DNA of 64,000 nucleotides, taken from NCBI RefSeq assembly GCF_014279975.1, contig NZ_CP047936.1:2294001-2358000 (forward strand). Reading direction: 5' to 3'. The translations under genes and the position numbers were made by a program. Under the pieces are notes generated by a model, which was not told the origin of the DNA, ran no database searches, and saw only the letters and a list, made by a program, of their open reading frames with translations. This document shows, piece by piece, positions 4,085 through 29,331 of the stretch. Each line of letters begins with the position of its first letter. Positions within the stretch are counted from its first letter, which is position 1. The DNA is from Synechococcus sp. BIOS-U3-1 (GTDB lineage Bacteria > Cyanobacteriota > Cyanobacteriia > PCC-6307 > Cyanobiaceae).

Positions 4085-4111
4085 ATCGCTTTCCAAGTCG
4101 AAGATGTTTGC

Positions 4112-5358: not shown

Positions 5359-5362
5359 TCCT

Positions 5363-5551
5363 GTGGGAGTGAACCAAAAAGCCCTGCGCTGGATTGTGGC
5401 CATGACCCCCGTTGCTGGAGCCGTGGCATTCCCGATTCTTGTCCCTCTCACGATGGCAAAAGTTGGGATTGGAGCCGGTGTTGGCTTGGCACTCGTGCTG
5501 AGCAGTCTCTGGTTTGTCGGAATGCTGAAAACCTCTGAAATGCCCCACTGA
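5363..5551 (+). CDS. Small two-helix membrane protein
   Basis: A 62-residue frame from a GTG at 5363, 4 bp after the DUF4912 gene, so probably part of the same transcript. Two hydrophobic segments (WIVAMTPVAGAVAFPILVPL and GIGAGVGLALVLSSLWFVGM) separated by a short loop predict a helical hairpin in a membrane. A second GTG two codons downstream (5369) is an equally possible start. I do not recognise the family. Confidence 0.6.
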   Translation: MGVNQKALRWIVAMTPVAGAVAFPILVPLTMAKVGIGAGVGLALVLSSLWFVGMLKTSEMPH

Positions 5552-5602: not shown

Positions 5603-7024
5603 GTGCTGGACAGGCAGCTGAAACACCTTCCACGACTTGCCCTACTGCCTCTACTGACACCAGTAATGCTGGGCTGCAGCCAGGCAGGTCAAGTTGTAGG
5701 AGCAGGGATACCTGATCTGCCCTTGCCGCAGAACTTTCAGCTGCACTTCAATCATCGGGACAGCGGGCGCTACCGAAACCCGCTAAGTGGCCAGTGGCGT
5801 AACGGCGACAACCTTGAACAACAGTTGATCCAACAGATCAATGCGGCGAAAGAGGAAGTGCAGATGGCCATTCAGGAACTCACACTTCCCCAAATCTCAC
5901 ACGCCCTGATTCGAGCCAATGAGCGAGGAGTCCGCGTTCAGATCGTGCTGGAAAACAAATACAACCAGCCCTGGTCGAAACAGCATCCCAGCGATTTGTC
6001 AGCTCACAGCAAGCGGCGCTACCAGCAATTGCGACTGCTGGCAGACAGCACTCGCGACGGGAGGCTCTCTGCTGAGGAACGGTTAGCTGGCGATGCCATC
6101 GCACTCCTGAAGCGGGCTGGAATACCGATGATCGACGACAGCGAAGACGGCAGCCGAGGCAGTGGCCTGATGCATCACAAATTTCTTGTGGTCGATCGAT
6201 CTCTGGTGATCATCGGCAGTGCCAACTTCACCAGCTCTGGGATCCATGGTGATGCGGGAGCATCGCGCAGTCGCGGCAATGTGAATCACCTGCTGAGCAT
6301 CCGAAGCTCCGAACTGGCTGAGTTGTTCCAGGAAGAATTTCAGCGGATGTGGGGAGATGGTCCGGGAGGTGATCAGAACAGTCGCTTCGGACGTGACAAA
6401 GACAGCCCAGGAGTACAAACCGTTCAAGTCGATGGAATACCAGTGAATGTGCTGTTCGCACCTCATTCCAAGAAAAGCTCAGAACATGGACTGATCTTGA
6501 TCAGTAAGCAGCTGGCTGCAGCGAAGCGAAGTATCGACATGGCGCTGTTTGTGTTTTCAGACCAAAGCCTGACCAATGTTCTGGCAGATCAAATGGCTGC
6601 ACGCGTCGAAATTCGACTCTTAGCGGATCCAGGCTTCGCAAGCCGCTCTTTTTCAGAGGTGCTTGATCTGCTTGGCGTGGAACTCCCCGACCGTTTTTGC
6701 AAACTTGAGAGAGGCAATCAACCTCTCAAAACACCACTGCGAACCGTGGGAACGCCGAAACTGGCCAGGGGTGACAAGTTGCACCACAAGTTCGCGGTGA
6801 TCGACAACAAAACAGTGATCACAGGCAGCTTCAACTGGTCACCCGCTGCTGCACACACCAACGATGAAACATTGCTAGTGATTCACTCACCCATGCTTGC
6901 TGCTCACTTCACTCGTGAGATGGATCGGATGTGGCGTGGTGCGGAGCTGGGGATTACACCCCACATTCAACGCAAGCTGGAACGGAAGCAAGCAAAGTGC
7001 GGGAGCGGAACTGAGAGAAACTAA
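5603..7024 (+). CDS. Phospholipase-D-family lipoprotein with two HKD motifs
   Basis: A 473-aa PLD-superfamily protein (nuclease/phospholipase/cardiolipin-synthase-like). The N terminus is a lipoprotein signal (LLPLLTPVMLGC, lipid-modified Cys25), so it should be anchored in the envelope. Both catalytic motifs are intact: H191-x-K193-x4-D198 in LMHHKFLVVD followed by GSANFTSSG, and H394-x-K396-x4-D401 in KLHHKFAVID followed by GSFNWSP. Two complete half-sites are needed for activity, so it looks functional. GTG start at 5603 (VLDRQLKHL). The substrate cannot be deduced; the lipoprotein signal suggests an extracytoplasmic phosphodiester target. Eroded copies of its 3' half occur at about 13968-14662 and 18222-18500 in front of two TPR genes, so this gene is a likely parent or sister of those remnants. 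Confidence 0.88.
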   Translation: MLDRQLKHLPRLALLPLLTPVMLGCSQAGQVVGAGIPDLPLPQNFQLHFNHRDSGRYRNPLSGQWRNGDNLEQQLIQQINAAKEEVQMAIQELTLPQISHALIRANERGVRVQIVLENKYNQPWSKQHPSDLSAHSKRRYQQLRLLADSTRDGRLSAEERLAGDAIALLKRAGIPMIDDSEDGSRGSGLMHHKFLVVDRSLVIIGSANFTSSGIHGDAGASRSRGNVNHLLSIRSSELAELFQEEFQRMWGDGPGGDQNSRFGRDKDSPGVQTVQVDGIPVNVLFAPHSKKSSEHGLILISKQLAAAKRSIDMALFVFSDQSLTNVLADQMAARVEIRLLADPGFASRSFSEVLDLLGVELPDRFCKLERGNQPLKTPLRTVGTPKLARGDKLHHKFAVIDNKTVITGSFNWSPAAAHTNDETLLVIHSPMLAAHFTREMDRMWRGAELGITPHIQRKLERKQAKCGSGTERN

Positions 7025-7691
7025 AGAGCGAAGGACAGTATAAATTTTCTCCAATAAGCGAATTAGAGTCCTATGCTCATTACTTGCATCAACATTAGCC
7101 ATAAGTCTCTACCTAACCGCGGGGGATAAAAACGAAAAGCAAGCTGGTATCCAAACGCTTGATCAAATCTGGCCGCAATACGAAATCCCTTGCAGTAAAT
7201 GAGGCCAAAATCATTAACTGCTGCAGAAACCAAACGGACAGCATCCCTTCAATTTGTAGAAGCAACCCATCATCTGGGAGCAGCCATACATCAACCCTAG
7301 AAGATTCAACAAATACAGTTATTTTGCAGGCAAATATGGAGATTTGCAAATAGCATCCAGAAAAATACTTACTTTTAATTGCGAGCAGTTCGTCAGCGCA
7401 CCCGAGGCGAATCAGAAGTGGCGTCGCGGATAACTGAAACTAGGGTTCGTTAATAGCCATCATCACCCCGAGAAAGGCATAAGAAGCGTAAATATCGGAA
7501 TCGTAATGCAAGCAAAAAATTGATAAGCAGTAAATCAGTGGTTGAAAGGAAAAACCACGAATGGTCACTAAAGCCCTATCAAAAAATGCTGGGAGAAAGT
7601 GGACATTTAAAGTAATAAATCAGGCAAAACAAGTTTTATTTAAAATTTATCCAAAAATTTAATACGACACTCCCTTTGCTCTGCCATGAAA
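7025..7691. other. Gene-free AT-rich start of the accessory island
   Basis: Composition becomes clearly AT-rich after the PLD gene. No complete gene is supported. On the plus strand around 7068-7190, a frame without a standard start reads like a short hydrophobic leader (SLLASTLAISLYLTAG) followed by a polar stretch and a stop. The same frame becomes protein-like again at about 7290-7430. This could be a decayed exported protein, but I cannot name it. Confidence 0.4.
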
Positions 7692-8834
7692 CTATAAGAT
7701 ATTAAACCTGTTTGGATATTTATTAGCGAAAAAAGCTTTTACCCAATACACCACATAGTCAATATCGCAATCATTCATGCCAGGATGACATGGCAAGCTA
7801 ATAAGCTTCTTCCATTCAACATCTGCAACAGGGTAATCGCGCTGGTTCATATTTTTTACGATGTCGTAGAGGTGGAGAGGCTTAAAATGAACACTTGTGT
7901 GTATATTTTTTTCAGCTAAAAATGAAATAAGATTATCACGATCTTCAGGATCGACCTTGGCACAATAGTACTGCACTGTTTCACTATGTGGGGGCGCTTG
8001 AATAAAGCCAGCCAACTCCTCATTATATCGTTTCTGCACACGCCTTCTTATCTGCAAATGCTTTGGCAACTTTTTCATTTGCTCCAAGCAAATTGCCGCC
8101 TGTAAATCAATCATATAGCATTTATAACCTAAAATATCAACCTGATAATCCCAGGAATAACCAGGCTTACCCGACAAACAATCGTCTTTTTTTATTCTAG
8201 AATACGTGCTACTGATTCCGAGCCAAGTCATTGGCACTAATTTCTCATATAGCTCTTTATCGTCTGTAGTAATCATACCTCCATCGCCACAAGGCATTGT
8301 TTTGACAGCTTGAAATGACCATACAGCCGCATCACCCTTAGAGCCTGCGCCAGGGGTATAGCAACTGTGAGCACAATCTTCCAATATAAAACCATCATAA
8401 AAGCTTCGAATTTGATCTATAGGAGCAGGAACACCAGCCTGATTAACAGCAATAATTGCATTAGTATTAGATTTCAAGTTTTTTCTTACATCTTCTGGAT
8501 CAAGACACATTGTAAACGGATCGACGTCTACAATGTTTGAAGTGCAATTGTTCCATAAAGGAATAACCGCTGTAGACATAAAAGATATGGTTGGGTTTAT
8601 GATGTCACAGTCTTTAATTCCCAACGCTTTTAAAACAAGGTCTTGGCCACTGGTGGCACTATTTATTGCTACCGCATATTTAGCACCTACGAGTTCAGCG
8701 AACTCCTTTTCAAACTGAGCCACTTTCGGACCTTTACCCCACCAACCACTTTCTATTACCTCTCGAATTGCGTTAATTTCCTCATCTCCTCCAACAGGTC
8801 GGAGTACTGGCAAGATTGTATCTCTGATTTTCAC
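7692..8834 (-). CDS. DegT/DnrJ/EryC1/StrS-family sugar aminotransferase
   Basis: A 380-aa PLP-dependent aminotransferase of the DegT/DnrJ/EryC1/StrS family, which transaminates nucleotide-linked keto-sugars to amino sugars for surface glycans. The PLP-binding lysine is Lys178 in SFQAVKTMPCGDGGM; ILEDCAHS (residues 150-157) holds the cofactor-ring aspartate, and INSATSG (58-64) is the family phosphate-binding motif. Length is normal for the family. Base composition is AT-rich compared with the core genes, suggesting horizontal origin. It stands alone on the minus strand. The nearby GNAT acetyltransferase (22491) and GT41-like proteins would fit an acetylated amino-sugar pathway, but no dehydratase or nucleotidyltransferase partner is in the window. 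Confidence 0.9.
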   Translation of the reverse strand: MKIRDTILPVLRPVGGDEEINAIREVIESGWWGKGPKVAQFEKEFAELVGAKYAVAINSATSGQDLVLKALGIKDCDIINPTISFMSTAVIPLWNNCTSNIVDVDPFTMCLDPEDVRKNLKSNTNAIIAVNQAGVPAPIDQIRSFYDGFILEDCAHSCYTPGAGSKGDAAVWSFQAVKTMPCGDGGMITTDDKELYEKLVPMTWLGISSTYSRIKKDDCLSGKPGYSWDYQVDILGYKCYMIDLQAAICLEQMKKLPKHLQIRRRVQKRYNEELAGFIQAPPHSETVQYYCAKVDPEDRDNLISFLAEKNIHTSVHFKPLHLYDIVKNMNQRDYPVADVEWKKLISLPCHPGMNDCDIDYVVYWVKAFFANKYPNRFNIL

Positions 8835-8917
8835 GCGAGCAATCTTTAAAACGTATACTTCTGATTATATAGCTTCTGTTGACAGAATTGAGCGCGGCAG
8901 CCTGTCGCTGCAAATTT

Positions 8918-8964
8918 CTGTATCATCTATAGCACATCAATAATAGTATAAGCTGATGATACAG
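8918..8964. repeat. 10-bp inverted repeat upstream of the aminotransferase
   Basis: CTGTATCATC (8918-8927) and GATGATACAG (8955-8964) are perfect reverse complements separated by 27 bp. It lies 84-130 bp upstream of the aminotransferase start on the minus strand, so it could be an operator or an mRNA leader structure. Confidence 0.5.
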
Positions 8965-9087
8965 ATATTGAGATCCTGCCTCGAAATCAGAATTAATTTT
9001 TACTTTAAAAAAAGGAAGCCCACTAAATTTAGTCTAAAAAGCAAAAATCAAATAGCACGGCAGAATTTCATGAAACACACAAAATCT

Positions 9088-9113
9088 CATGGCAGACTAA
9101 GGAGTCTGCCATG
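9088..9113. repeat. Perfect 11-bp hairpin
   Basis: CATGGCAGACT-AAGG-AGTCTGCCATG is a perfect hairpin with a 4-nt loop. It has no strong T-run on either side, so it is a weak candidate for a terminator. It may be the remains of a mobile element end or a small-RNA structure. Confidence 0.55.
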
Positions 9114-9465
9114 AAAAAGGGTATTCTTTAACCAGATTGCCGAATAGAAGTTGGCGAAAAATTGAGGTTTAATTCTTGAAGAATTTAAAACCACATAAAA
9201 ACCAACGAATACCAAGGTAAGAAGCTCGAGCCTCCTTATAGGCAAATTCGAAGCAGAGGAACAAGCAGCAATGGTTGCTAAAAATAATCGGGAAGGGCCA
9301 ACTGCTCAGGAAAGTTACAGAGTTATTGAAACTTGCAGATAATCAAGACCTCGTAAATCTCACTGAGGGAAGCTGCCTTAGACAGTCAACAACCCGCTAG
9401 TGAAATTGACATGGCGTCACCCCTTAGGCAATTTGACGACAGGCAATTACAAACAGATACGGGCT

Positions 9466-9486
9466 CACACGAATTCGATTCGTGTG
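9466..9486. repeat. Palindromic site CACACGAAT-TCG-ATTCGTGTG
   Basis: Perfect 9-bp arms around a 3-bp centre. The geometry would suit a dimeric regulator as well as a hairpin. No flanking gene is close enough to decide. Confidence 0.45.
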
Positions 9487-9794
9487 TGCAGAAGGAAACC
9501 GTAGAACGTTACTCACAGCCTTTTCTGACGGTTCTCCTACCTCTAAAAAGCCAGGGTCAAGAGGGCTCTGAAAAGAACTCAAATCATGAGATAGCAGAAA
9601 GCTCTTGGTAATGAGAACACCCAAGTCCTTATGTTCCACTCGATGCGCAGAAGGTCAGTCAATATACGAAGAGCCTTGCCTTTAGCTCCATCGCATGCCA
9701 CAAAATCAATTGACCATGAAACCAAATGGGCAAAAAGTTTCATCAAGTTGGACAGGCATGATTTAGAGGACTTAGATAAAAGATTCTCTTAGAG

Positions 9795-10000
9795 GTTTTT
9801 TGATCAGCTTGCCCCCCATCCATTCCCTGATTTAATTTCTCAGACCAGGGAATGGAATTACAGTCCACGCCAATAAACCTTGGAATATCCCTACAACCAT
9901 TCAGCTGTAGATGGTTGCAGGGCTGACGCAGACTATCTCGAAGACCTCCCTCATACGAATGATCGAATGGGTAGGGTACTGCGCAGCATCAGTCTTCCTA
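9795..10000 (-). pseudogene. Decayed AlpA-like phage regulator
   Basis: Read on the minus strand, this region gives RMREVFEIVCVSPATIYS, a stop, then MVVGIF in one frame. The neighbouring frame continues IPRFIGVDCNSIPWSEKLNQ, and WMGGKL returns in the first frame. That order (R-x-x-E-V-x-x-x-x-x-x-S-x-x-T-x-Y, then G-x-F-P, then W and a final W-M/I) is the AlpA/CP4-57 family helix-turn-helix layout, here broken by stops and frameshifts. AlpA-type regulators mark prophages and integrative elements. No integrase is next to it. Confidence 0.45.
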
Positions 10001-10305
10001 CTGAGGGTAGAATCCAGCATATTTGTCTCTCTTAACCACAGGAAGTCCATGGTCTACTGCCTTAAGAAATTGATCTAAATTCCTGATGACCACCTGGTTC
10101 TTAGATATATCTGGTTAAGATGAGTGAAGCAGTTCATTGAAGCTCTTCATCTCACCCATCACCTTCGGCTGTCAAAATTTGCAATTCGTCTTTCAGTAAC
10201 CTGAGATACCATGACAGCAAAGATGACTATAAAACGAGAATCTCAAAGGAATCACTACAGTCCTAGCTTGGTCGAACTCGGAGACGCCAACGCTTCGGCT
10301 ACCCC

Positions 10306-10375
10306 ACTCCTAAATGCCCCGTGCATGATCTGAATTCAGGGGGCATCCGCCTAGTCCTCGGAGTCGTTTAGGAGT
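10306..10375. repeat. Nested inverted repeat
   Basis: ACTCCTAAA (10306-10314) pairs with TTTAGGAGT (10367-10375), and inside it ATGCCCC (10314-10320) pairs with GGGGCAT (10340-10346). The arrangement could fold as a branched RNA or mark the end of a lost mobile element. Confidence 0.42.
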
Positions 10376-10529
10376 CCATAGAACTGACCGATAGAGACGA
10401 AATGAACGCGTCAAAAGTCTAATTCGGTCATTGAAAGAGGCTGAAAGACAGTTGAGCGCTGGCTTAAGACACGAACCGAAAATTGCTCAAACGACTTAAA
10501 TTACTCCCCAGGCAAGGCGTAAACACCTC

Positions 10530-13500
10530 GTGAATCAAAAGACTATTCAGGATCTCTCATCCGCTGGACAACATCAGGAGTGCCTACAGGCTTGTCAAAA
10601 ACTTCTCCAGAGCGAACCTGAAAACCCCTTCGCCTGGAAATACGCAGGTAAATCACTCATAGCCCTACAGCAATTTGAAAGGGCTCGACAGTTCTTGGCC
10701 AAAGCCCACCAAATTGATAAAAACGATCCGGAGACGATGAAAGACATCGGAAATATCTACCTAAACACAAAAAACAAAATTATTGCCATCAAATGGTACA
10801 AAAAAGCCCTAGAAGCAAATAATCTATTCGCACCTGCAATTAACAATCTTGCCAACCTTAAGAAGCAGGATGGCAATCACAAAGCTGCCATTGATCTATT
10901 CAAACAATCTATAGAGGCAGACCCAAAACTGATCCAATCATACATTGGTGCAGCAGCAAGCTTTCTGGAATTAGGAGAACTCGATCAAGCAACATCATTG
11001 GCAAAAAAAGCTCTAAAAATGAACAAAGACGTCCAGACTATAAATGAAATCCTCGGAGTCATCTTCCAGAAAAAAAACAATATTCAACAAGCAATAAAAT
11101 ATTACCAGAAGGAACTAGCGATAAATCCGCGATCGAGCACCTCACTTCTAAACATAGGCCTACTGCACTTACAGCAAGGGAAGGCAGCAGAGGCTATCGA
11201 GCCGCTTTCAATCGCATCCGCCCTTGTCCAAACCGAACAGTGCTCACTTCTCTTGGCGCAGGCATATCAAAGTCTTGGAGATTTTAACAATGCAATAATT
11301 GAATACAAGAAAATGAATATCAACAAAACAAGAAATAAGCTGATTCCATTCAACCTTGGACTCTGCCTACTTGAGACTGGGCGCAATAGTTCTGCCATAG
11401 AAGCATTCAAAGTCGCCGTTCAGCTAGACGAGTCTTTTATCCCCGCATGGGGAAACATTGGGACTGCTCTCATGAACGAGGGGAGGCATCAAGAAGCACG
11501 CCTCGTAACACAAAAAGTTCTTGAAAAAGATCCAGACAATCCCACTGCCCACATGAACTTGGGCAGCATTTACAAAGCCTTCGGCAACCTTGATCAAGCT
11601 CTTGCTTCAACTTTGAGATCCCTAGAGCTTAAGCCTGATAACCCCACTGCCCACATGAACTTGGGCAGCATTTACAAAAATCTTGGCAAACTTGAGCCAG
11701 CTCTTGCTTCGACATTGAAATCGCTAGAGATCAAACCTGATAACCCCGATGCTCACATGAACCTGGGCAGCATATACAAAGATCTTGGCAAACTTGAGCC
11801 AGCTCTTGCTTCGACATTGAAATCGCTAGAGATCAAACCTGATAACGCCGATGCTCACATGAACCTGGGCAGCATCCAGAAAGATCTTGGCAATCTTGAT
11901 CTAGCTCTTGCCTCCACTCTCAAATCTCTAGAACTCAAACCTGATAACCCTGACGCCCACATTAACTTAGGCGGCATCTACAAAAAGCTCGGGAAACTTA
12001 ATCAGGCCGTCGCCTCAACACTCAAGTCCCTAGAGATCAAACCTAATAACCCAGTAGCACACTCGAATTTGGGCAGCATCTATCAAAAACTCGGCGAACT
12101 CAATCTAGCTCTTGCCTCAACACGCAAATCCCTAGAACTCCAGCCTGACAACCCTGATATCCACTTAAACCTAGGTAGTATCCATAAAGACTTAGGCAAT
12201 CTTGATCAAGCTCTTGCCTCAATAGATAAATGCTTAGAGCTTAAACCTAATACCCCCGTTGCGCATTTGAACCTAGGCAGCATCTACAAAGATATGGGCA
12301 AGGCTGATCTTGCAATTGCATGTTTTGAACGCTGCTGCCAAACCCCGGATATCTCACCCTCGGAAACAGTGGCGGCGATTACAGGGCGCATTGCCTGCCT
12401 AATGGCACTGGATTGCTACGACGAAAGCCTCTTGGTGGCAGACAGTTGCAGTGACGACCGGCGCTTGCAGCTGATGACACGACTACATGTCCTACCGGTT
12501 CTATATGCAACGGATCATGAGGTCGCTGCAGTTCGCAAACGCTGGGAAAAAGATGCCGTAGATCTCTACAAGCTGTTGAAAGGCATCACTCAAGAGGACC
12601 CAGCCTGGGAACAACTTTATGTCCACGCCTGGACACTAACGAACTTCCATCTCGCCTATCAGATGGAAGACGATCGCCCTTTGCAGGAACTTTATTCAGG
12701 CATTATTGATCGAATCCTACGCCCCAGGCTTGGGGCGTTCATGCAACCTTTACCCCAACGCAATCCTTCAAACATCTCTCCGCTGCGGGTGGGAGTTATC
12801 TCCCCCAATTTGATGAACCACAACGGATCAATCTGGGCACTGGGATGGTTGGAAGGCATGGCCAACCATCCCGGTTACGAGATCTTCAGCTACAATCTCG
12901 GAACAAAAGAAGACTCAGGCAGTCAGAGATTCGCGGCTCTAGGAAGCTACCGCCATCTGCCTCTACGCGGAGAAAACCCTGAGGTCATGTTGCAGCAAAT
13001 CCTCAAGGATCAGCTAGATCTCCTGATCTACACCGATATTGGAATGCATCCGGCCAGCAATGTCACATCCGTGCTGCAGCTGGCTTCTATTCAGGCTCAG
13101 GGCTGGGGGCACCCGATCAGTAGTGGTTCCAAAACCATCCACTACTACTTCTCAGGCGAAGGGATGGAACCAGAAGGCAATGAAGATCATTACAGCGAAA
13201 CGCTGTATCGCTTGCCCAAAACAGGGCTAAATTACAATAAACCTGCCACAATCCACGACGGTCAACTGCTATTCGACAAATTTAATCTTCCCCGCAATAG
13301 ACCGATCCTCAATTCATTGCAGAGTACCTTCAAGTATCTGCCACGCAACGACTGGACATTCGCTGAGATTGCCCAGCGGCATCCCGAAGCCTTAATCGTT
13401 TTAGTTAGTGATAAAGGCAACGGAAGCATTGCCAAACGCCTATACGAGCGTTTAAAACCCCATTTTGAACACCGTGACCTCAATATCGAGAACCATCTGC

Positions 13501-13889
13501 GCATCTTGCCGAGACTGGATTACGGGGACTACATGGGGCTATTCGCGATCAGTCATCACACCATCGACACGATTGATTGGAATGGGGGCAACAGTTCAAT
13601 GCAATCATTATCACTCGACTGCCCCGTCGTCACTCTGCCCGCTAGTTTCATGCGCGGGCGTCACACAGTGTCGATGCTTGAAGTCCTAGAGTTACCCGAA
13701 TTGATTGCCAAAAATGTCGATGATTACATCGCGATCTCATGCCGGCTATTGAAAGAACAAAGTTTTTATCAAGACATGCGCGCTGCCATTAAAGCGCGAA
13801 AGGCCTGGTTGTTCCATGACAAAAGTGTGGCCAAAGCCTTTCAGGTTGCAGTAGATACAATTTGCCGCAAGCCACTTAAGCGAAATTAA
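10530..13889 (+). CDS. TPR-repeat protein with GT41 (O-GlcNAc-transferase-like) domain, copy 1
   Basis: An 1119-aa protein, GTG start. Residues 1-610 are TPR repeats: about eight divergent units, then eight near-identical 34-residue units (consensus MNLGSIYKDLGNLDQALAST). Residues from about 752 to 1110 form a SPINDLY/OGT-like catalytic region: VGVISPNLMNHNGSIWALGW (N-lobe), QAQGWGHPISSGSKTIHYYF and ETLYRLPKTGLNY (C-lobe), and NGGNSSMQSLSLDCPVVTLP (nucleotide-sugar end). GT41 enzymes add a sugar from a UDP- or other nucleotide donor to Ser/Thr of proteins held by the TPR superhelix. Its N terminus (MNQKTIQDLSS) matches copy 3, while its catalytic domain differs from copies 2 and 3. Enzyme activity is inferred. 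Confidence 0.88.
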   Translation: MNQKTIQDLSSAGQHQECLQACQKLLQSEPENPFAWKYAGKSLIALQQFERARQFLAKAHQIDKNDPETMKDIGNIYLNTKNKIIAIKWYKKALEANNLFAPAINNLANLKKQDGNHKAAIDLFKQSIEADPKLIQSYIGAAASFLELGELDQATSLAKKALKMNKDVQTINEILGVIFQKKNNIQQAIKYYQKELAINPRSSTSLLNIGLLHLQQGKAAEAIEPLSIASALVQTEQCSLLLAQAYQSLGDFNNAIIEYKKMNINKTRNKLIPFNLGLCLLETGRNSSAIEAFKVAVQLDESFIPAWGNIGTALMNEGRHQEARLVTQKVLEKDPDNPTAHMNLGSIYKAFGNLDQALASTLRSLELKPDNPTAHMNLGSIYKNLGKLEPALASTLKSLEIKPDNPDAHMNLGSIYKDLGKLEPALASTLKSLEIKPDNADAHMNLGSIQKDLGNLDLALASTLKSLELKPDNPDAHINLGGIYKKLGKLNQAVASTLKSLEIKPNNPVAHSNLGSIYQKLGELNLALASTRKSLELQPDNPDIHLNLGSIHKDLGNLDQALASIDKCLELKPNTPVAHLNLGSIYKDMGKADLAIACFERCCQTPDISPSETVAAITGRIACLMALDCYDESLLVADSCSDDRRLQLMTRLHVLPVLYATDHEVAAVRKRWEKDAVDLYKLLKGITQEDPAWEQLYVHAWTLTNFHLAYQMEDDRPLQELYSGIIDRILRPRLGAFMQPLPQRNPSNISPLRVGVISPNLMNHNGSIWALGWLEGMANHPGYEIFSYNLGTKEDSGSQRFAALGSYRHLPLRGENPEVMLQQILKDQLDLLIYTDIGMHPASNVTSVLQLASIQAQGWGHPISSGSKTIHYYFSGEGMEPEGNEDHYSETLYRLPKTGLNYNKPATIHDGQLLFDKFNLPRNRPILNSLQSTFKYLPRNDWTFAEIAQRHPEALIVLVSDKGNGSIAKRLYERLKPHFEHRDLNIENHLRILPRLDYGDYMGLFAISHHTIDTIDWNGGNSSMQSLSLDCPVVTLPASFMRGRHTVSMLEVLELPELIAKNVDDYIAISCRLLKEQSFYQDMRAAIKARKAWLFHDKSVAKAFQVAVDTICRKPLKRN
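11532..12345 (+). repeat. 102-bp coding repeats in TPR copy 1
   Basis: Eight consecutive 102-bp units, each one TPR. Motifs such as CACATGAACTTGGGCAGC and CTTGCTTC recur with little change at the DNA level, also in wobble positions. The units starting near 11739 and 11841 are almost identical to each other. Confidence 0.85.
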
Positions 13890-13967
13890 TTACAACTTCA
13901 TTCACAAATATAGAATATTTCCACAAAGAATAGGCAGGAACGTCGCTATACATAATTTCACGGGTAT

Positions 13968-14662
13968 GGATGCTGAGTGAGGTCAGCCTTGGCGCTTCAA
14001 CCAATCACACTGTCAACGCTCATTACTTACAGCGTCACTGATCCTTAAACCCGCCTCACCATAGGAAAGTAGATCAGGCTCTAGTGATCACAGTCAGTGC
14101 CAAAATCAACAGCTCAGAAATCATTGGTGATGCAAAACTATTCGCAATCACGACAATAAGATTCACACATTGAATACCCAAAGCTTCGAACTGACTGGAG
14201 TATTCCGTGAAGAATTGAAGCGGTGTGAGACGATGATTCGGAAGGAAATCAGGACAGTGCATTCGGACGTGGCAAAGTAAACCCAGATGTTCAAGCTATC
14301 CATGTCCCATGGTGCTTTTTACTAGGCGTGGAGCTACCCGAGCGCTTTTGCAAGCTTGAATCAGAAAATCAAACTCTCAAAACCGGATACATACCACCGG
14401 CTTTCCGTAACTGACCGGCAGCGACAAACACCATGACAAGTTCGCCACACTCGTGAACGAATCCTGATCACGAGATCCTTCAAATGATCGCCCTCTGGTT
14501 CTCACGCCAACGATGTGAGCTTTCTTGTGATTCACTCCACAAAACTTGCTACTCACTTCACCCCGGAGATAAACCGACTCTATGAAGCCGCTGTGCTGGG
14601 GAACACAGCACACATCCAATTCAAACTCGACCATCAGCGAATCAAGTGCGAAGATGGGATAT
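13968..14662 (+). pseudogene. PLD-gene remnant in front of TPR copy 2
   Basis: This non-coding stretch aligns by eye with the PLD gene at 5603-7024. Shared pieces include CGAACTGACTGGAGT/CGAACTGGCTGAGT, CAGTGCATTCGGACGTGGCAA against CAGTCGCTTCGGACGTGACAA, and GGCGTGGAGCTACCCGAGCG against GGCGTGGAACTCCCCGACCG. About 240 bp corresponding to 6430-6665 of the intact gene are missing, joining the HKD1 region to the HKD2 region, and stops and indels break every frame. The start is approximate. It ends just before the next TPR gene, matching the end of the PLD frame. Confidence 0.8.
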
Positions 14663-14733
14663 AGAGACATTGCTAGTAGCAGAAATGATAGATTAAGCTG
14701 TAGGCAACGCTTAGGGAATATCCCACAAAAAAA

Positions 14734-17700
14734 ATGTCAGGATTTGGAGAGGAAAAAAGCAAGAAGAAGAAAAACCAGCGTGGGCGAATTAGCCAACCGG
14801 ATGGAAAGTCTCTTTATAGGAGCGCAATCAACCACCACGCAAAAGGAGACCTAGCCAATGCCGAAAAGGATTATAGGGAAGCAATAAAGACTGGCTTTTT
14901 TCATCATTCCTTGTTCTCAAACCTCGGGGTTATTTGTAAAGACAGTGGAAGGCCAGAAGAAGCAACCAACCTATACAAAAAAGCAATTGAAATAAACCCT
15001 AACCATCCTGACGCTTACTCTAATCTCGGCAGTTTATACAAAGATCTCGGCAACCTTGATCAAGCTCTTGCCTGCACACTGAAATCACTAGAGCTCTATC
15101 CCAACAACCCCACTGCCCACATGAACTTGGGCGGCATCTACAAAGAACTCGGCAACCTTGATCAAGCTCTTGCCTACACACTAAAATCACTAGAGCTCTA
15201 TCCCGATAACCCTACTGCCCACATGAACTTGGGCGGCATCTACAAAGGCCTCGGCAACCTTGATCAAGCTCTTGCCTACACACTGAAATCATTAGAGCTA
15301 GAGGCCGATAATCACGATTCATACCTGAACCTAGGAGTCATCTATAAAGATCTCGGCAACCTTGATCAAGCTCTTGCTTCCACACTGAAATCACTAGAGC
15401 TCTATCCCAATAACCCCACTGCCCAAATGAACTTGGGCGGCATCTACAAAGACCTCGGCAACCTTGATCAAGCTCTTACTTCCACACTGAAATCACTAGA
15501 GCTAAAGGACAATAATCACGATGCGTACCTGAACCTGGGCGGCATCTACAAAGACCTCGGCAACCTTGATCAAGCTCTTGCCTACACACTGAAATCACTA
15601 GAGCTCTATCCCAATAACCCCACTGCCCACATGAACTTGGGCGGCATCTACAAAGACCTCGGCAAACTTGATCAAGCTCTTGCTTCCACACTGAAATCAC
15701 TAGATCTAAAGGCCAATAATCACGATGCGTACCTGAACCTAGGAGTCATCTATAAAGATTTCGGCAACCTTGATCAAGCACTTACTTCCACGCTGAAGTC
15801 TCTAGAGCTCAAGCCAAATAATGCCGAGTGTCAAATGAACCTAGGTGCCATTTACAAAGATCTGGGGCACCTTGATCAAGCTCTTGCCTCAACACTGAAA
15901 TCCATCGAGCTAAAGGGCGATAATCACGATGCATACCTGAACCTAGGAGTCATCTATAAAGATCTCGGCAACTTTGATCAAGCACTTACCTCCACGCTGA
16001 AGTCTCTAGAGCTCAAGCCTAATAATGCCGAGTGTCAAATGAACCTAGGCGCCATCTACAAAGATCTCAGCAAACTTGATCAAGCACTTACGTACACACT
16101 TCAAGCTCTAGAGATCAGGCCCGATAACCACATTGCACATATGAACCTGGGGAGCATCCACAAAGATCTTGGGAACATTGATCAAGCTCTTGCTTGCACT
16201 CATACATCTCTAGAACTCAAACCTGACAACCCTGAGGCCCTGCTTAATCTGGGGGGAATTCACAAAGACCTCGGCCAGCTTAATCAAGCTCTTTCATTAA
16301 CACTAAAATCCCTAGAAATTAAGCCTGATAACCCGACAGCACTCCTGAAACTCGGAAGCATCTATAAAACACAAAAAGATTATGATAAAACCAAGGAATC
16401 ATATAGAAAAGCCTTTGAGCATGAACCAACTATTGAAAATGCATGCCTATCAAGATTAAATTTTCCATGGAACACAGCTTGCCAAGGAGACACTGAAAGG
16501 CTTAGATCTGAATATATCAAAAATGCAAGAGAAATATTTGCGAGCAGTCGCCCAAAAACTACAAAAAGCTTCTTAGACCTGTCTTTATTCATGCTATCCT
16601 ATCAAAATGGCAGCGATGACAAAGATTTCCTAGAAACAATAGGCAAACTAGTAAACCCGTGGCTTGCCATAAAATCAATGGACGAAGAAATAGCAATAGA
16701 AAGACTACAATGTCTCAAAAGTGACTCTGGAGAGAAACTCTCGCCTAAAGTTGGATTTTATTTCGACAATACCGAAAAAGATCATGTAGTATTTAGACAT
16801 TATTTTAATATGGTAAAAAATTGCCATGAAAACGGAATTGAAGTCATCATAATTAAAGGACCCATGGCTGCAAAGCAGAACAGCAATGAATTAGAAAATC
16901 AATCATCATGCGTCATACAGCTTTATCCGAACTTTGAGCAATCAGTCAAAACCTTAAAAAGGCTGAATTTGCAGATGCTCATATATACAGAGATTCACTC
17001 GTCTCCTGCGCCTTACTGCTTAGCTCACAACAGAATCGCACCAATTCAAGCAGTATTTCCAGGCAATTTAATAACAACAGGCATTCCCACCATGGACTAC
17101 TTTATTTCGAGCGAGTGCATGGAAACAAGCAACTCAAAAGATCAATACACCGAAAAATTAATCAAGCTCAAAGGGATGCCTCATGGAATCACAGACATCC
17201 CTAAACTTAGCCACAAAAAGGATCGCAAATATTTCAATCTTCCTCAAAAGTGTAGAATATTTGGATTATTGCATAATTTGATAAAGTTTCACCCAGACTG
17301 GGACAATTTACTAGAACGAATAGCCAAAGATAGCGAAAAAACTATTTTCATAGTTGCAGGAGAAGGCAGTTGTTCCAGCCTCTTCCTTAAGAACAGGTGG
17401 AAAGAGAAGGCGCCGACCTTTTTATCCAAATGCAGATTTTTCAATCAAATGTCACAGGACGAATACTTTAATTTACTGGCATGTGCAGATGCAGTTCTTG
17501 ATCCAATTCACATAGGCTGCGGAACAACTTCGATTGATGCCCTAAGTCTAGGAATCCCAATTGTCACAAAACCAGAAGTCCATCCTCGAACCAGAATTGT
17601 GCATGGACTTTATGAAATCATGGGCATAAAAAATGCCCCAATTGCACATACGGACTCAGATTATGTCAATTGCTGCACTGAAATACTTAGCACTAAAGAA

Positions 17701-17820
17701 GGATACATTAGACTCAAAGAGTCAATCAGAATGAACTACCATAAGGTTGTAACCGCGAACCAGCAATCGATAAATCAAATCACAGAAGAAATCAAAAAAA
17801 TGGTAACTACTTCCCCTTAA
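14734..17820 (+). CDS. TPR-repeat protein with divergent GT41-like domain, copy 2
   Basis: A 1028-aa protein with a short Lys-rich N terminus (MSGFGEEKSKKKKNQRGR), unlike the other two copies. After two divergent TPRs come 14 tandem units of 34 residues (roughly residues 90-560), many sharing GNLDQALA. The C-terminal region from about 668 is a diverged GT41-like domain: VGFYFDNTEKDHVVFRHYFN, IAPIQAVFPGNLITTGIPTM, EKLIKLKGMP, then CGTTSIDALSLGIPIVTKP near the end. This last motif is the nucleotide-sugar region of OGT-like enzymes. The C-terminal half is closely similar to copy 3. The gene is AT-rich and ends without an obvious terminator. Protein O-glycosylation is the likely role, but donor sugar and target are unknown. 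Confidence 0.86.
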   Translation: MSGFGEEKSKKKKNQRGRISQPDGKSLYRSAINHHAKGDLANAEKDYREAIKTGFFHHSLFSNLGVICKDSGRPEEATNLYKKAIEINPNHPDAYSNLGSLYKDLGNLDQALACTLKSLELYPNNPTAHMNLGGIYKELGNLDQALAYTLKSLELYPDNPTAHMNLGGIYKGLGNLDQALAYTLKSLELEADNHDSYLNLGVIYKDLGNLDQALASTLKSLELYPNNPTAQMNLGGIYKDLGNLDQALTSTLKSLELKDNNHDAYLNLGGIYKDLGNLDQALAYTLKSLELYPNNPTAHMNLGGIYKDLGKLDQALASTLKSLDLKANNHDAYLNLGVIYKDFGNLDQALTSTLKSLELKPNNAECQMNLGAIYKDLGHLDQALASTLKSIELKGDNHDAYLNLGVIYKDLGNFDQALTSTLKSLELKPNNAECQMNLGAIYKDLSKLDQALTYTLQALEIRPDNHIAHMNLGSIHKDLGNIDQALACTHTSLELKPDNPEALLNLGGIHKDLGQLNQALSLTLKSLEIKPDNPTALLKLGSIYKTQKDYDKTKESYRKAFEHEPTIENACLSRLNFPWNTACQGDTERLRSEYIKNAREIFASSRPKTTKSFLDLSLFMLSYQNGSDDKDFLETIGKLVNPWLAIKSMDEEIAIERLQCLKSDSGEKLSPKVGFYFDNTEKDHVVFRHYFNMVKNCHENGIEVIIIKGPMAAKQNSNELENQSSCVIQLYPNFEQSVKTLKRLNLQMLIYTEIHSSPAPYCLAHNRIAPIQAVFPGNLITTGIPTMDYFISSECMETSNSKDQYTEKLIKLKGMPHGITDIPKLSHKKDRKYFNLPQKCRIFGLLHNLIKFHPDWDNLLERIAKDSEKTIFIVAGEGSCSSLFLKNRWKEKAPTFLSKCRFFNQMSQDEYFNLLACADAVLDPIHIGCGTTSIDALSLGIPIVTKPEVHPRTRIVHGLYEIMGIKNAPIAHTDSDYVNCCTEILSTKEGYIRLKESIRMNYHKVVTANQQSINQITEEIKKMVTTSP
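15010..16375 (+). repeat. 102-bp coding repeats in TPR copy 2
   Basis: About 14 units of 102 bp. Two alternating types can be seen: one with an ELYPNNPTAHMNLGG junction and one with an ELKANNHDAYLNLGV junction. Higher-order units of 204 bp are therefore present, for example the pairs near 15730-15930 and 15930-16130. Confidence 0.82.
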
Positions 17821-18221
17821 AACAACAATCTCTAATTCTTAGACATTTCCCGCCAAAGCAATCTACTCTGAGCAAAAAGTTGAGGAATTTAATGCGCTAT
17901 TGTCAAGAGGGAAGTGGCAGTGGCGATTCGAATTCAATTATTAATCTTTTCTAGCAATTTAAGCTCTTATATACGAAAGAGCCGGAAAGCATTGAAACCC
18001 TTAAACGAGTCCATAAAATCATTGTGCAATAAGAAAGCAATACTCACAAGTAAGCTAGTTTCTGAAAAAGCCATCACTTAAGAGGCAACAGTCATCCTTG
18101 ACTGCTTGTTCTCCATTGAAAAACCCTGAAGCACTGAAAAGATACTCATCTCGACTTCCCCCAATGAGCTTTAAAGGTTGAGAAAAGAGCTAGATCCCCC
18201 AGCTAAGCATTTCACCCAAGA
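17821..18221. other. Spacer between TPR copy 2 and the second PLD remnant
   Basis: AT-rich, no gene supported. No clear promoter or terminator seen. It may include further eroded PLD sequence too diverged to recognise by eye. Confidence 0.4.
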
Positions 18222-18500
18222 TTTCGATGAAAATGGCTTACCTATGGCGAAAAGCTGCATCACGAGATCTCGGTCATAGACAACTAAACCATGATCACAG
18301 GAAGTTTAAACTGGTCACCCATTCAGCTCACACCAACGATAAAATTCCACTGGTGGACCACTCACCCAAGCTTGCTACTCATTTCACAAGTGAGATTAGG
18401 CGGATATGGCGAAGTACTGAGCTGGAACTCACCACTCAAATACGCCAGACGAAGAAACAGAAATCAATCTGCGAAAGCAGGGTGGAGGAAAATTTAATAT
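18222..18500 (+). pseudogene. PLD-gene remnant in front of TPR copy 3
   Basis: Corresponds to the last part of the PLD gene (about 6755-7020). CATGATCACAGGAAG and TTTAAACTGGTCACCCAT match the HKD2 region, and CACTCACCCAAGCTTGCTAC and GAGATTAGGCGGATATGGCG match its end. An open frame of 91 codons survives (18227-18502) and reads HTNDKIPLVDHSPKLATHFT, but the HKD motif itself is destroyed and the N-terminal three quarters are gone, so it is not a working enzyme. Confidence 0.78.
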
Positions 18501-18518
18501 GACCTGGGTAGTAGCTTT

Positions 18519-18560
18519 AAGAGTGACTTAAGAGTGACTTAAGAATGACTTAAACGACTT
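18519..18560 (+). promoter_or_regulatory. Tandem 11-bp direct repeats upstream of TPR copy 3
   Basis: AAGAGTGACTT (18519-18529), AAGAGTGACTT (18530-18540), AAGAATGACTT (18541-18551) and the shortened AAACGACTT (18552-18560). One repeat per helical turn is the layout bound by OmpR/PhoB-type response regulators, and the spacing resembles cyanobacterial Pho boxes, though the bases do not match the Pho consensus well. The repeats end 31 bp before the start codon. A regulatory role is inferred. Confidence 0.45.
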
Positions 18561-18591
18561 AGAATTTACTCAGAAATAGCGATGGCACTGA

Positions 18592-21500
18592 GTGAATCAA
18601 AAGAGAATTCAGAATCTCTCATCAACTGGCCGTCATCAGGAGTGTCTGCAGGCTTGCCAACAACTTCTCGTGAGCGAACCTGAGAACCCGTTTATCTGGA
18701 AGTTCGCAGGCAAATCACTTTTAGCTCTAGGGCAGTTTGAAAAAGCTCAACATTTCCTAGCCAAAGCTCATCAGCTCGACAGCACCGATCCCGAAATACT
18801 CAAAGACATTGGCAATATTTTCAATGCCCTTCAAAACGACATGGAAGCGATAAGGCTTTATAAAGCAGCTCTATCCATCGATCAAAATTATGCAGCAGCA
18901 ATCAACAATCTTGGATTAATCGCTAAGCGACAAAGAGACCTCAGCACCGCAGAACAATTAGTCAAGAAAGCTGCAGATTTAGAGCCATCATTTGCACCAT
19001 ATCATCTCAACCTAAGCAGTATTTACAAAGACCTCGGCAAGCTTGATCAAGCTCTTACTTCCACTTTGAAATTCCTAGAGCTCAAACCTAATAACCCCAA
19101 TGCCTACATGAACCTGGGCAGCATCTACAAAGACCTCGGTAACCTTGATAAAGCTCTTGCTTCAACATTGAAATCCTTAGAGCTCAAACCTGATAACCCC
19201 AATGCCCACATGAATCTGGGCAGCATTTACAAAGACCTCGGCAACCTTGATCAAGCTCTTGCTTCAACATTGAAATCCCTAGAGCTCAAACCTGACAACC
19301 CAGATGCTCACATGAACCTGGGCAGCGTATACAAAGATCTTGGCAAACTTGATCTAGCTCTTGCTTCAACATTGAAATCCCTAGAACTTAAACCTGATAA
19401 CTCCTATGCACATAAGAACCTTGGTGGTATCTACACAGACCTAGCCAAGCTTGATTTAGCTCTTGCCTCCACATTGAAATCCCTAGAGCTCAAACCTGAT
19501 AACCCAGATGCCCACATGAATCTGGGCAGCATTTACAAAGACCTCGGCAACCTGGATCAAGCTCTTGCTTCCACACTGCAATCCCTTGAGCTCAAGCCTG
19601 ATAACCCCACTGCCCACATGAACCTAGGCGACATCTACAAAGATCTCGGCAACCTTGATCAAGCTCTTGCTTCCACACTGCAATCCCTTGAGCTCAAACC
19701 TGATAACCACAATGCCCATATAAACCTGGGCAGCATCTACCAAGATCTTGGCAACCTTGAACAAGCTCTTGCTTCCACACTGCAATCCCTAGGACTCAAA
19801 CCTGATAATCCCGATACCCACAAAAACCTTGGTGGTATCTACAAAGCCCTCGGCAACCTTGATCAGGCTCTTGCTTCCACACTGAAATCAGTAGAGCTCA
19901 AATCTGATAACCCCACTACCCACATGAATTTGGGCGGTATCTACAAAGAGCTCGGGAACCTTGATCAAGCTCTTGCTTCCACTCTGAAATCCCTTGAGCT
20001 CAAACCTAATAACCCCGACACCCTCATAAACCTGGGCATCATCCATAAAGACCTCGGCAACCTGGATCAAGCTCTTGCTTCCACACTGCAATCCCTTGAG
20101 CTCAAGCCTGATAACCCCACTGCCCACATGAACCTGGGCGGCATCTACCAAGACCTCGGCAACCTTGATAAAGCTCTTGATTCCACTCTCAAATCTCTTG
20201 AGCTCAAACCTGATATCCCCACTACCCACATGAACCTGGGCAGCATCTACCAAGACCTCGGCAACCTTGATCAAGCTCTTGCCTCCACATTGAAATCCTT
20301 AGAGCTCAAACCTGACAACCCCACTGCCCACATGAATTTGGGCGGTATCTATAAAGACCTCGGCAACCTTGATCAAGCTCTTGCCTCCACATTAAAATCC
20401 GTAGAACTCAAACCTGACAACGCCGATGCCCTACTCAACCTGGGCGGCATATACAAAAAGCAAAAAGATTACGATAAAACAAAGGAGTCATACGAAAAAG
20501 CCTACGAGTATGAGCCAACTATTGAAAATGCATGCCTAGCAAAATTAAATTTTCCGTGGAACATAGCCTGCCAAGAAGACGTCGAAAAACTTAGATCTGA
20601 ATACATCAAAAATGCAAAAGACATCTTTGCAAACCATCAGAAAAAAGCTACAAAAAACTTTTTAGATTTATCGCTATTCATGCTAACTTACCAGAACGGC
20701 AGCAATGACAGATATTTTCTGGAAACAGTAGGAAAACTATCAAATCCTTGGCTTGCAATAAAATCAGTACCAGAAGACACAAATAAACGACAACATCCCA
20801 TAGCAGATGGTGAGCAAAAAATCTCACCTCGAGTTGGTTTTTATTTCGACAATACTGAAAAAAGCCATGTAGCCTTTAGGCATTACTTTAATATAATAAA
20901 AAATTGCCATAAAAACGGAATTAAAGTTATAATAATCAAAGGGCCAATGGCAGCCAAACAAAACAGCGATGAACTAGAGAAACACTCATCATACGTCGTA
21001 CAAATTTATTCAAACTTTGAGCAAGCAGTTAAAACCTTAAGAAGGCTGAATCTACACGTTCTCATATACACAGAAATTCATTCATCTCCTGCGCCATACT
21101 GCTTAGCTCACAACAGAATTGCACCAATTCAAGCAGTACTTCCAGGCAATTTAATAACAGCAGGAATCCCCACCATGGACTACTATATTTCAAGCGAATA
21201 CATGGAAACAAGCAATTCACAAGATCAGTACACGGAACAGTTAATCAAACTCAAGGGAATGCCTTGGGGCATCACCGATATTTCTAAGCCTAGCCATGAA
21301 AAGACTCGAAGCAATTTCGGCCTTCCCAGACAATCTCGCATATTTGGCTTATTGCATAATTTGATAAAATTTCATCCAGACTGGGACGATTTACTTGAAA
21401 AAATAGCGCAAAACAGCGAAGATACAATTTTTATTCTGACAGGAAAAGGCAGCAAACCCAGTCTCTTTCTTAAGAATAGATGGAGAGATAGTGCGCCAAT

Positions 21501-21903
21501 ATTTTTGTCTAAATGCAAATTTTTTGACCAAATGCCAAAAGACGACTATTTAAATTTACTGGCATGCGTTGATGTAGTACTCGATCCAATTCATATGGGC
21601 AGCGGTACAACTTCGATTGATGCTCTCAGTATGGGCATTCCGATTATCACAAAACCAGAAGATCATCCTCGAACACGTCTTGTGTATGGATTATATAAAA
21701 TTATGGGCATTAACAATGCTCCAATCGCGCAAACAGAATCAGACTATTTCACTTACTGCACTAGATTACAAAGCAACAATCAAGAATACGCTGAACTCAA
21801 AGAATTAATTAAAAAGAACTATCCCAAGGTTATAACTTCAAGCCACCAATCAATAAATCAAATCACAGAGGAGATAAAAAAGCTAACAAAGCAATCAAAT
21901 TAA
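18592..21903 (+). CDS. TPR-repeat protein with divergent GT41-like domain, copy 3
   Basis: An 1103-aa protein from a GTG at 18592. Its first 80 residues (MNQKRIQNLSSTGRHQECLQ...) closely match copy 1, while everything after the repeats (from about residue 630) matches copy 2, so it is a mosaic. Fifteen tandem TPR units (about residues 137-640) are almost identical, most reading MNLGSIYKDLGNLDQALAST. The GT41-like region starts near 746: VGFYFDNTEKSHVAFRHYFN, APIQAVLPGNLITAGIPTMD, QLIKLKGMPWG and SGTTSIDALSMGIPIITKP. The start follows the 11-bp repeat block. The same role is proposed as for copy 2. The high repeat identity suggests recent expansion or gene conversion. Confidence 0.87.
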   Translation: MNQKRIQNLSSTGRHQECLQACQQLLVSEPENPFIWKFAGKSLLALGQFEKAQHFLAKAHQLDSTDPEILKDIGNIFNALQNDMEAIRLYKAALSIDQNYAAAINNLGLIAKRQRDLSTAEQLVKKAADLEPSFAPYHLNLSSIYKDLGKLDQALTSTLKFLELKPNNPNAYMNLGSIYKDLGNLDKALASTLKSLELKPDNPNAHMNLGSIYKDLGNLDQALASTLKSLELKPDNPDAHMNLGSVYKDLGKLDLALASTLKSLELKPDNSYAHKNLGGIYTDLAKLDLALASTLKSLELKPDNPDAHMNLGSIYKDLGNLDQALASTLQSLELKPDNPTAHMNLGDIYKDLGNLDQALASTLQSLELKPDNHNAHINLGSIYQDLGNLEQALASTLQSLGLKPDNPDTHKNLGGIYKALGNLDQALASTLKSVELKSDNPTTHMNLGGIYKELGNLDQALASTLKSLELKPNNPDTLINLGIIHKDLGNLDQALASTLQSLELKPDNPTAHMNLGGIYQDLGNLDKALDSTLKSLELKPDIPTTHMNLGSIYQDLGNLDQALASTLKSLELKPDNPTAHMNLGGIYKDLGNLDQALASTLKSVELKPDNADALLNLGGIYKKQKDYDKTKESYEKAYEYEPTIENACLAKLNFPWNIACQEDVEKLRSEYIKNAKDIFANHQKKATKNFLDLSLFMLTYQNGSNDRYFLETVGKLSNPWLAIKSVPEDTNKRQHPIADGEQKISPRVGFYFDNTEKSHVAFRHYFNIIKNCHKNGIKVIIIKGPMAAKQNSDELEKHSSYVVQIYSNFEQAVKTLRRLNLHVLIYTEIHSSPAPYCLAHNRIAPIQAVLPGNLITAGIPTMDYYISSEYMETSNSQDQYTEQLIKLKGMPWGITDISKPSHEKTRSNFGLPRQSRIFGLLHNLIKFHPDWDDLLEKIAQNSEDTIFILTGKGSKPSLFLKNRWRDSAPIFLSKCKFFDQMPKDDYLNLLACVDVVLDPIHMGSGTTSIDALSMGIPIITKPEDHPRTRLVYGLYKIMGINNAPIAQTESDYFTYCTRLQSNNQEYAELKELIKKNYPKVITSSHQSINQITEEIKKLTKQSN
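19003..20470 (+). repeat. 102-bp coding repeats in TPR copy 3
   Basis: Fourteen near-identical 102-bp units plus one diverged last unit. Stretches such as GACCTCGGCAACCTTGATCA recur many times exactly. This is the most homogeneous of the three arrays and the one most likely to vary in copy number between strains or to be misassembled. Confidence 0.85.
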
Positions 21904-25610: not shown

Positions 25611-25613
25611 GCG

Positions 25614-29320: not shown

Positions 29321-29331
29321 GACTCAGTCGC

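What the first reader, a model, noticed from the sequence alone, without database searches (positions are those of the whole stretch)
5603..21903. A duplicated PLD + TPR-glycosyltransferase unit with decayed PLD copies
The intact PLD gene is followed at two later points by fragments of itself, each lying immediately upstream of a giant TPR/GT41 gene. The pattern is PLD (intact), TPR1, PLD remnant, TPR2, PLD remnant, TPR3. This suggests repeated duplication of a module with selective loss of the PLD part and retention of the TPR part, or exchange of material through repeated recombination. I know of no described system pairing a PLD lipoprotein with TPR-GT41 proteins in this way.
Basis: partly seen in the sequence, partly recalled or inferred. 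Interest (0 to 1): 0.75.

Follow-up and report, generated by a model that had tools for sequence, protein, structure and literature searches.

The report
Gene scars from stacked mobile elements
The broken gene pieces are best read as scars left when small mobile DNA elements repeatedly inserted into the end of one conserved cyanobacterial gene, each time rebuilding that gene and setting new genes, often a giant repeat-protein gene, behind it.

Summary
In detail: two PLD remnants lie just upstream of two of the three giant TPR genes, far above shuffled sequence. The duplicated-module reading is not the best one. Across related genomes PLD pieces recur; of 46 mapped by blastn, 29 start within -20 to +7 codons of the second HKD motif, 13 later, 4 earlier. 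18 of 19 integrase N-termini of one tyrosine-recombinase clade have such a piece at 0-204 nt; the nineteenth has a short one at 210 nt. In G022 the displaced piece, from the HKD codons on, and what follows are colinear with the uninterrupted locus of G025 (95.9% over 2,225 nt), while G022's intact PLD has a different 3' end. So an element inserts in PLD, supplies a new 3' end and leaves the old one as a scar. TPR genes are cargo: 13 of 72 PLD 3' ends have a TPR start within 200 nt (chance mean 0.58). Sister integrases sit likewise beside pieces of methylpurine glycosylase and uvrA. In the window only old relics remain: no such integrase, and remnant 1 is longer than the model predicts.

The parts
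4279..5358 (+). conserved gene upstream of PLD (359 aa), left anchor of the locus
   Evidence: found upstream of PLD in 30 of 30 mapped loci
5603..7024 (+). intact PLD gene (two PLDc_2 matches, probable lipoprotein), the target gene
   Evidence: matched in 29 of 31 same-genus genomes, 24 of 24 near-complete ones
6770..6805 (+). second HKD motif of PLD (GGTGACAAG..CACCACAAGTTCGCGGTGATCGAC), inferred crossover/attachment region
   Evidence: 29 of 46 mapped fragments start within -20 to +7 codons of it (alignment); the G022 fragment starts at it
7035..7211 (+). decayed remnant of a small gene that follows a PLD fragment in G009
   Evidence: 80% identity to L040:8379-8555 (ORF)
7202..7561 (+). decayed remnant of the C-terminal end of a TPR-sulfotransferase gene
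   Evidence: 66% identity over 369 nt to the end of the G024 TPR gene and 67% over 355 nt to one in G008; the G024 C-terminal part matches Sulfotransfer_3
7692..8834 (-). DegT/DnrJ/EryC1 aminotransferase, probable cargo
   Evidence: PF01041 E 1e-78
10530..13889 (+). TPR1, TPR protein with GT41 C-terminus, cargo
   Evidence: spacer upstream aligns with PLD-to-TPR spacers of other genomes
14057..14670 (+). PLD remnant 1, codons about 191-272 and 350-473, begins at or near the first HKD motif
14734..17820 (+). TPR2, cargo; C-terminus 72% identical to that of TPR3, different N-terminus
18237..18493 (+). PLD remnant 2, codons about 387-473, begins at the second HKD motif (attachment scar)
18592..21903 (+). 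TPR3, TPR protein with GT41 C-terminus, cargo; N-terminus 64% identical to TPR1
23952..25610 (+). phosphoglucomutase, right anchor of the variable region
   Evidence: NF005737 E 3.8e-277; follows PLD in 24 of 30 mapped loci, the other six ending before it

Best explanation
The PLD remnants are attachment-site scars of a family of small integrative elements. A tyrosine integrase inserts the element in PLD at about the second HKD motif (codons about 374-401). The element brings its own PLD 3' end, so PLD stays intact with a new 3' end, and the native 3' end is pushed to the far side of the element as a truncated piece beside the integrase gene. A TPR-effector gene is a frequent cargo at the end that abuts the rebuilt PLD. 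Repeated insertion at the rebuilt site stacks elements. In the window at least two stacked elements remain as relics: TPR genes kept, integrases lost, scars decayed. Shown by comparison: recurrent 3' fragments, integrase next to fragment, one filled versus empty site, TPR adjacency. Inferred: that this integrase catalyses it, that the donor is circular, that the window's own remnants arose this way, and that the TPR gene is co-transcribed with PLD.
For: Sixteen of 31 same-genus genomes have extra PLD pieces (15, G002 added). Of 46 pieces mapped by blastn, in same-genus genomes and others, 29 start within -20 to +7 codons of the HHKF of the second HKD motif. Integrase-fragment coupling: 18 of 19 N-termini of the PLD-linked integrase clade have a PLD fragment on the opposite strand at 0-204 nt (the 0, in G009, is a cross-domain alignment; its fragment proper starts 204 nt away), and the nineteenth (L084) has a 61-nt match 210 nt away; 0 of 11 N-termini of sister integrases have one. 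Six such integrases in G055, G142, G200 and G229 were found by whole-genome search without regard to PLD and then proved to lie beside PLD pieces. The 11 fullest PLD-linked integrases form one group, support 100/96. Filled/empty site: G022's fragment and the following sequence align from base 3147 to 5370 of G025's locus at 95.9%, 3147 being at G025's second HKD motif, while the 500 nt after G022's intact PLD have no match there. The G022 fragment is 98.9% identical to G025, G022's intact 3' end 81.2%; G022 and its sister G006 share 91.8% in the 5' part and 79.4% in the 3' part. TPR start within 200 nt downstream of 3 of 34 intact and 10 of 38 fragment 3' ends, the window's two included; random placement in the same loci gives mean 0.58, maximum 4 in 2,000 draws. 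A matching layout at two other genes, MPG and uvrA.
Against: No integrase of this family is left in the window genome (0 matches; none in the window's gaps). Of the 46 mapped pieces, 13 start 12-42 codons after the motif, six of them at +26 to +30, which may be decay or another crossover place, and 4 start 101-194 codons before it, remnant 1 of the window among them. No PLD remnant was found before TPR1. Of ten sister pairs tested for a change point in PLD, two put it within 31 nt of the motif, six elsewhere and two showed none. Of 14 fragments compared, six are closest to their own host's intact 3' end (G009 f1, G014, G024, G006 f1, G007, G004) and one ties (G015 f1), which the simple model does not predict; only G022 gives a clean case. 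Only one empty/filled pair was compared. No excision or circle was observed.
Confidence: 0.82

Rival explanations
1. Tandem duplication of a PLD+TPR module followed by decay of the extra PLD copies.
For: TPR1 and TPR3 share N-terminal sequence (64%) and TPR2 and TPR3 share C-terminal sequence (72%); G008 holds what looks like a local duplicate of a fragment+TPR unit at another locus; four of 46 pieces, remnant 1 included, keep more of PLD than an HKD2 scar would; six of 14 fragments are closest to their own host's intact 3' end.
Against: None of the 46 mapped pieces keeps PLD upstream of the first HKD motif; 29 start around one motif, many beside an integrase; the G022 fragment is the native end, not a copy of the resident one.
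Confidence: 0.08
2. Foreign DNA entered by homologous recombination using PLD as the anchor gene, without site-specific recombination.
For: PLD sequences show other recombination break points; the window genome has no matching integrase; fragment starts are not all at one place.
Against: Integrase group and target gene correspond; three unrelated target genes show the same kind of layout.
Confidence: 0.12
3. Remnant 1 marks an insertion at the first HKD motif of PLD, whose DNA resembles the second.
For: Remnant 1 begins at or near the first HKD motif (codon 191), and in the ten genes printed both motifs read CAYCAYAARTTY.
Against: A single case; the other three long remnants start elsewhere, 167, 121 and 101 codons before the second motif; no integrase beside it.
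Confidence: 0.3

Closest known systems
dusA-associated integrases and islands (DAI; PMC4482086: abstract and sections 15 and 18 read)
   Same: Tyrosine integrases whose islands insert in a conserved protein gene, replace one end of it with island-borne sequence and may keep it working; variable cargo.
   Different: Target there is mostly the 5' end of dusA; here PLD 3' end, MPG 5' end and uvrA 3' end in cyanobacteria, with TPR-effector cargo. Kinship of the integrases was not tested.
Tycheposons (features taken from passages of PMC10872708; the original Prochlorococcus paper is recalled and was not among the 8 papers listed)
   Same: Tyrosine-recombinase elements carrying cargo in marine bacteria, first described in Prochlorococcus.
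   Different: Those passages describe tRNA genes at the border; the 13 PLD-locus stretches scanned held no tRNA, and the target here is a protein gene.
Genomic islands of marine Synechococcus (PMC2441476: passages found by keyword)
   Same: Variable regions with integrases and carbohydrate-modification genes between core genes.
   Different: The passages seen set island borders by mobility genes, tRNA genes or blocks of core genes; 'phospholipase', 'TPR', 'tetratricopeptide' and 'glycosylase' do not occur in the held text.
Siphovirus P-SS2 integration site in Prochlorococcus (PMC2784084: abstract and passages found by keyword)
   Same: Integrase-linked site in a picocyanobacterial genomic island.
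   Different: Its putative site is a 53-bp match in non-coding DNA with partial identity to a tRNA, not a protein gene.

Membership tests
Site-specific integrative element with restoration of a protein-gene target (DAI-like mode) | tyrosine integrase at the element edge | tested here: met
   PF00589 E 3e-18; 18 of 19 N-termini beside a PLD fragment, the nineteenth beside a short one. In relatives, not in the window.
Site-specific integrative element with restoration of a protein-gene target (DAI-like mode) | target gene intact at one edge, truncated piece at the other, empty site in a relative | tested here: met
   G022 versus G025, one pair; fragments
Site-specific integrative element with restoration of a protein-gene target (DAI-like mode) | excision as a circle | not testable with these tools
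   needs PCR or reads across the junction
Window locus as such an element | own integrase gene or remnant | tested here: not met
   no match in G000, none in the gaps; five PF00589 matches elsewhere in the genome, four over the cut-off
Window locus as such an element | target fragment starting at the attachment motif | tested here: inconclusive
   remnant 2 yes (4 codons before the HHKF); remnant 1 starts near the first HKD motif
dusA-associated integrase (DAI) family | target is dusA | tested here: not met
   targets named here are PLD, MPG and uvrA
dusA-associated integrase (DAI) family | integrase belongs to the DAI clade | not tested
   no DAI sequence was compared
Tycheposon | bordered by a tRNA gene | tested here: not met
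   no tRNA in the 13 PLD-locus stretches scanned; the window's only tRNAs lie at 59.8-60.0 kb
GT41 glycosyltransferase (TPR proteins) | PF13844 above cut-off | tested here: met
   TPR1 59.3 and TPR3 36.8 bits against cut-off 25; TPR2 has no match at E 0.001 and is assigned by 72% identity to TPR3

The most novel reading that the evidence does not exclude
One integrase family in picocyanobacteria inserts at the codons of conserved motifs in unrelated protein genes (PLD nuclease-like lipoprotein, methylpurine-DNA glycosylase, UvrA), rebuilding each gene as a chimera, and uses the PLD site to place TPR-effector genes (glycosyl-, sulfo- or methyltransferase ends) straight behind a working host gene. 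It would then both renew the C-terminus of a core enzyme and act as a delivery site for swappable TPR effectors.
Probability: 0.35. Interest if true: 0.75.

Novelty: new variant of a known kind. Interest (0 to 1): 0.6.

Why it matters
It names an insertion hot spot between PLD and phosphoglucomutase across marine picocyanobacteria where no tRNA gene was seen, gives its likely integrase, and explains why giant TPR genes gather there. Because the element brings the second HKD motif and the last 80-90 residues of PLD, each insertion would also rewrite a core enzyme. The scars are a readable record of past insertions even where the integrase is gone, as here.

Tried and rejected
Scans of IMG/VR viral contigs with the integrase and with PLD as single-protein queries (close relatives only): no relative confirmed in either. 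tRNA target: not supported. Integrase relics in the window's gaps: only chance-level hits. A change point in PLD at the insertion motif as a general test: only 2 of 10 pairs fit, so it is not used as support beyond the G006/G022 identities. A shared insertion core of PLD and MPG: both hold CACCAC, but by eye no longer common core was seen. Integration at the first HKD motif for all long remnants: not supported. Papers: ten searches; judged from the listings and the abstract starts, and from passages or sections of the five papers opened (PMC10872708, PMC4482086, PMC7779031, PMC2441476, PMC2784084), none describes PLD, MPG or uvrA as an integration site in cyanobacteria or TPR cargo on such elements. 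The library lacks most subscription journals.

Rows dropped or not followed: integrase matches lacking residues 1-25 were left out (for example two decayed ones in G028 and one in G001), three HSPs of one G007 remnant count as one, and loci L006, L007 and the single stretches of the two joined regions were left out as duplicates. Genome-wide integrase matches not mapped: G025:C1:540716 (32% identity), G028:C18:25286 (short) and G132:C92. In one search only PLD matches reaching within 25 residues of the end were counted. In one search G019 was left out because its motif reads KLAV. In one search the two pieces of remnant 1, of the L046 fragment and of the L072 remnant were each counted as one, and rows of the resident genes were left out.
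Full report
What was checked. The window lies in a 2.71 Mb, single-contig genome (G000) whose PLD protein is 82% identical to those of Synechococcus sp. AG-673-A03 and AG-679-A04. PLD (5603-7024) is intact, with two PLDc_2 matches. Two remnants lie at 14057-14670 and 18237-18493, well beyond 200 shuffles each. No remnant was found before TPR1, though the spacer upstream of it aligns with the PLD-to-TPR spacers of other genomes.

Other genomes. PLD is matched in 29 of 31 same-genus genomes, in 24 of 24 near-complete ones, and in 147 of 251 sampled genomes of the family. Sixteen of the 31 carry extra pieces of it (15, one more). Where the pieces start was recounted by blastn over 29 stretches: of 46 pieces, 29 start within -20 to +7 codons of the HHKF of the second HKD motif, 13 start 12-42 codons later (six of them at +26 to +30), and 4 start 101-194 codons earlier. 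The upstream neighbour is the same in 30 of 30 mapped loci; phosphoglucomutase follows PLD in 24 of them, after 0.6 kb (G012) to 16.9 kb (the window), with very different contents between. Six loci end before it, among them G028, which runs about 27 kb to the end of its contig.

What sits at the pieces. Of 14 fragments printed, seven are preceded by one kind of conserved sequence and three by another; four, the window's two included, by neither (shared stretches). The conserved sequences lead into the start of a tyrosine recombinase gene (L064:11071-12132, PF00589 E 3e-18). Counting N-termini only, 18 of 19 integrases of this clade have a PLD fragment at 0-204 nt on the opposite strand, usually about 180-200; the nineteenth (L084) has a 61-nt match 210 nt away. 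Eleven N-termini of sister integrases have none. The clade occurs in at least five genera (g1, g5, g10, g26, g30). Many loci were fetched because of PLD, but those of G055, G142, G200 and G229 came from a genome-wide integrase search.

Filled and empty site. In G022 the displaced piece and what follows match G025 without a break (95.9% over 2,225 nt, bases 3147-5370 of L061), starting at G025's second HKD motif; the 500 nt after G022's intact PLD have no match there. The 5' part of G022's PLD also matches G025 up to this motif, but I had cut it there, so its end is by construction. G022's intact PLD has a different 3' end (81.2% to G025 against 98.9% for the piece). This is what integration with replacement of the gene end predicts. 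It is one pair. Of 14 fragments compared, seven are closest to another genome's 3' end, six to their own host's and one ties, which may reflect repeated insertion of similar elements or gene conversion. A change-point test put the break at the motif in 2 of 10 pairs.

TPR genes as cargo. Thirteen of 72 PLD 3' ends (3 of 34 intact, 10 of 38 fragments, the window's two included) have a TPR start within 200 nt, against a chance mean of 0.58 and a maximum of 4 in 2,000 draws. C-terminal parts differ: GT41 (window), methyltransferase (G028), sulfotransferase (G024). In G028 the order PLD-TPR-integrase-fragment-TPR-integrase remnant-fragment-TPR shows stacking. A gene related to the zinc-ribbon part of phage DNA primases (PHROG matches; Pfam zinc-ribbon below its cut-off) lies in seven PLD-linked and three MPG-linked loci. 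Five elements measured 4.2-8.9 kb.

Other targets. Sister integrases (mostly 53-59% identity) lie beside 5' pieces of methylpurine-DNA glycosylase in seven of the 11 sister N-termini (pieces end at ..GGCATYCACCACTGCGTGAA or near it), and two stacked ones in G160 lie beside 3' pieces of uvrA (NF001503 E 5.3e-36), 98.7% identical to the end of a 988-codon open frame downstream. Two sister N-termini have no target named here (L101, L102). No empty site was compared for these two genes. The PLD-linked and MPG-linked integrases each form one group in the tree (supports 100/96 and 89/85). TPR genes also lie near the MPG elements of G005, G013 and G020; none was found in the G160 uvrA stretch.

Back to the window. 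Remnant 2 fits the standard scar. Remnant 1 is longer, starting at or near the first HKD motif; insertion at that motif is possible, but the other long remnants start elsewhere. No integrase of this family remains in the genome. A decayed TPR-sulfotransferase end close behind PLD (7202-7561) suggests one more, largely erased unit. I read the window as old, stacked relics of elements that are better preserved in relatives.

Novelty. The mode is known from dusA-associated islands (PMC4482086, abstract and two sections read), where the island supplies a new gene end. New here, as far as ten paper searches and the passages seen show, are the PLD hot spot, the MPG and uvrA sites, the cyanobacterial integrase family and the TPR-effector cargo.

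Noticed in passing
window 10530-21903: TPR1 and TPR3 share their N-terminal part (64% over 113 aa) but hardly their C-terminal part (27%), while TPR2 and TPR3 share the C-terminal part (72%) and not the N-terminal one: the TPR genes look like mosaics, perhaps recombined through the 102-nt repeats.
   Followed up: partly
G008:C1:112000-171999 (L074, L070, L075), offsets 24000-33600: A second array TPR-fragment-TPR-fragments-TPR far from the PLD locus, with two very similar fragment+TPR starts about 5.2 kb apart, suggesting a local duplication or a moved island.
   Followed up: partly
L040:4680, 8207, 9844; L055:4133; L069:4974; L009:1047: Six PLD fragments in four genomes start at +26 to +30 codons after the second HKD motif, perhaps a second crossover place or a common step of decay.
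   Followed up: no
L078:9713-10255 and homologues in L079, L081, L095, L099, L101: A conserved 180-aa protein of unknown function near integrases of the sister clade and one PLD-linked locus; no PHROG match and no confident Pfam match.
   Followed up: no
L073 (G028:C2:30000-45000): TPR gene with a window-like GT C-terminus, two weakly DegT-like stretches and a long PLD remnant away from the PLD locus, the same kinds of genes as window 5603-14670.
   Followed up: partly
L101 (G109) and L102 (G160): Further relatives of the integrase with no PLD or MPG piece found beside them; their target genes were not identified.
   Followed up: no
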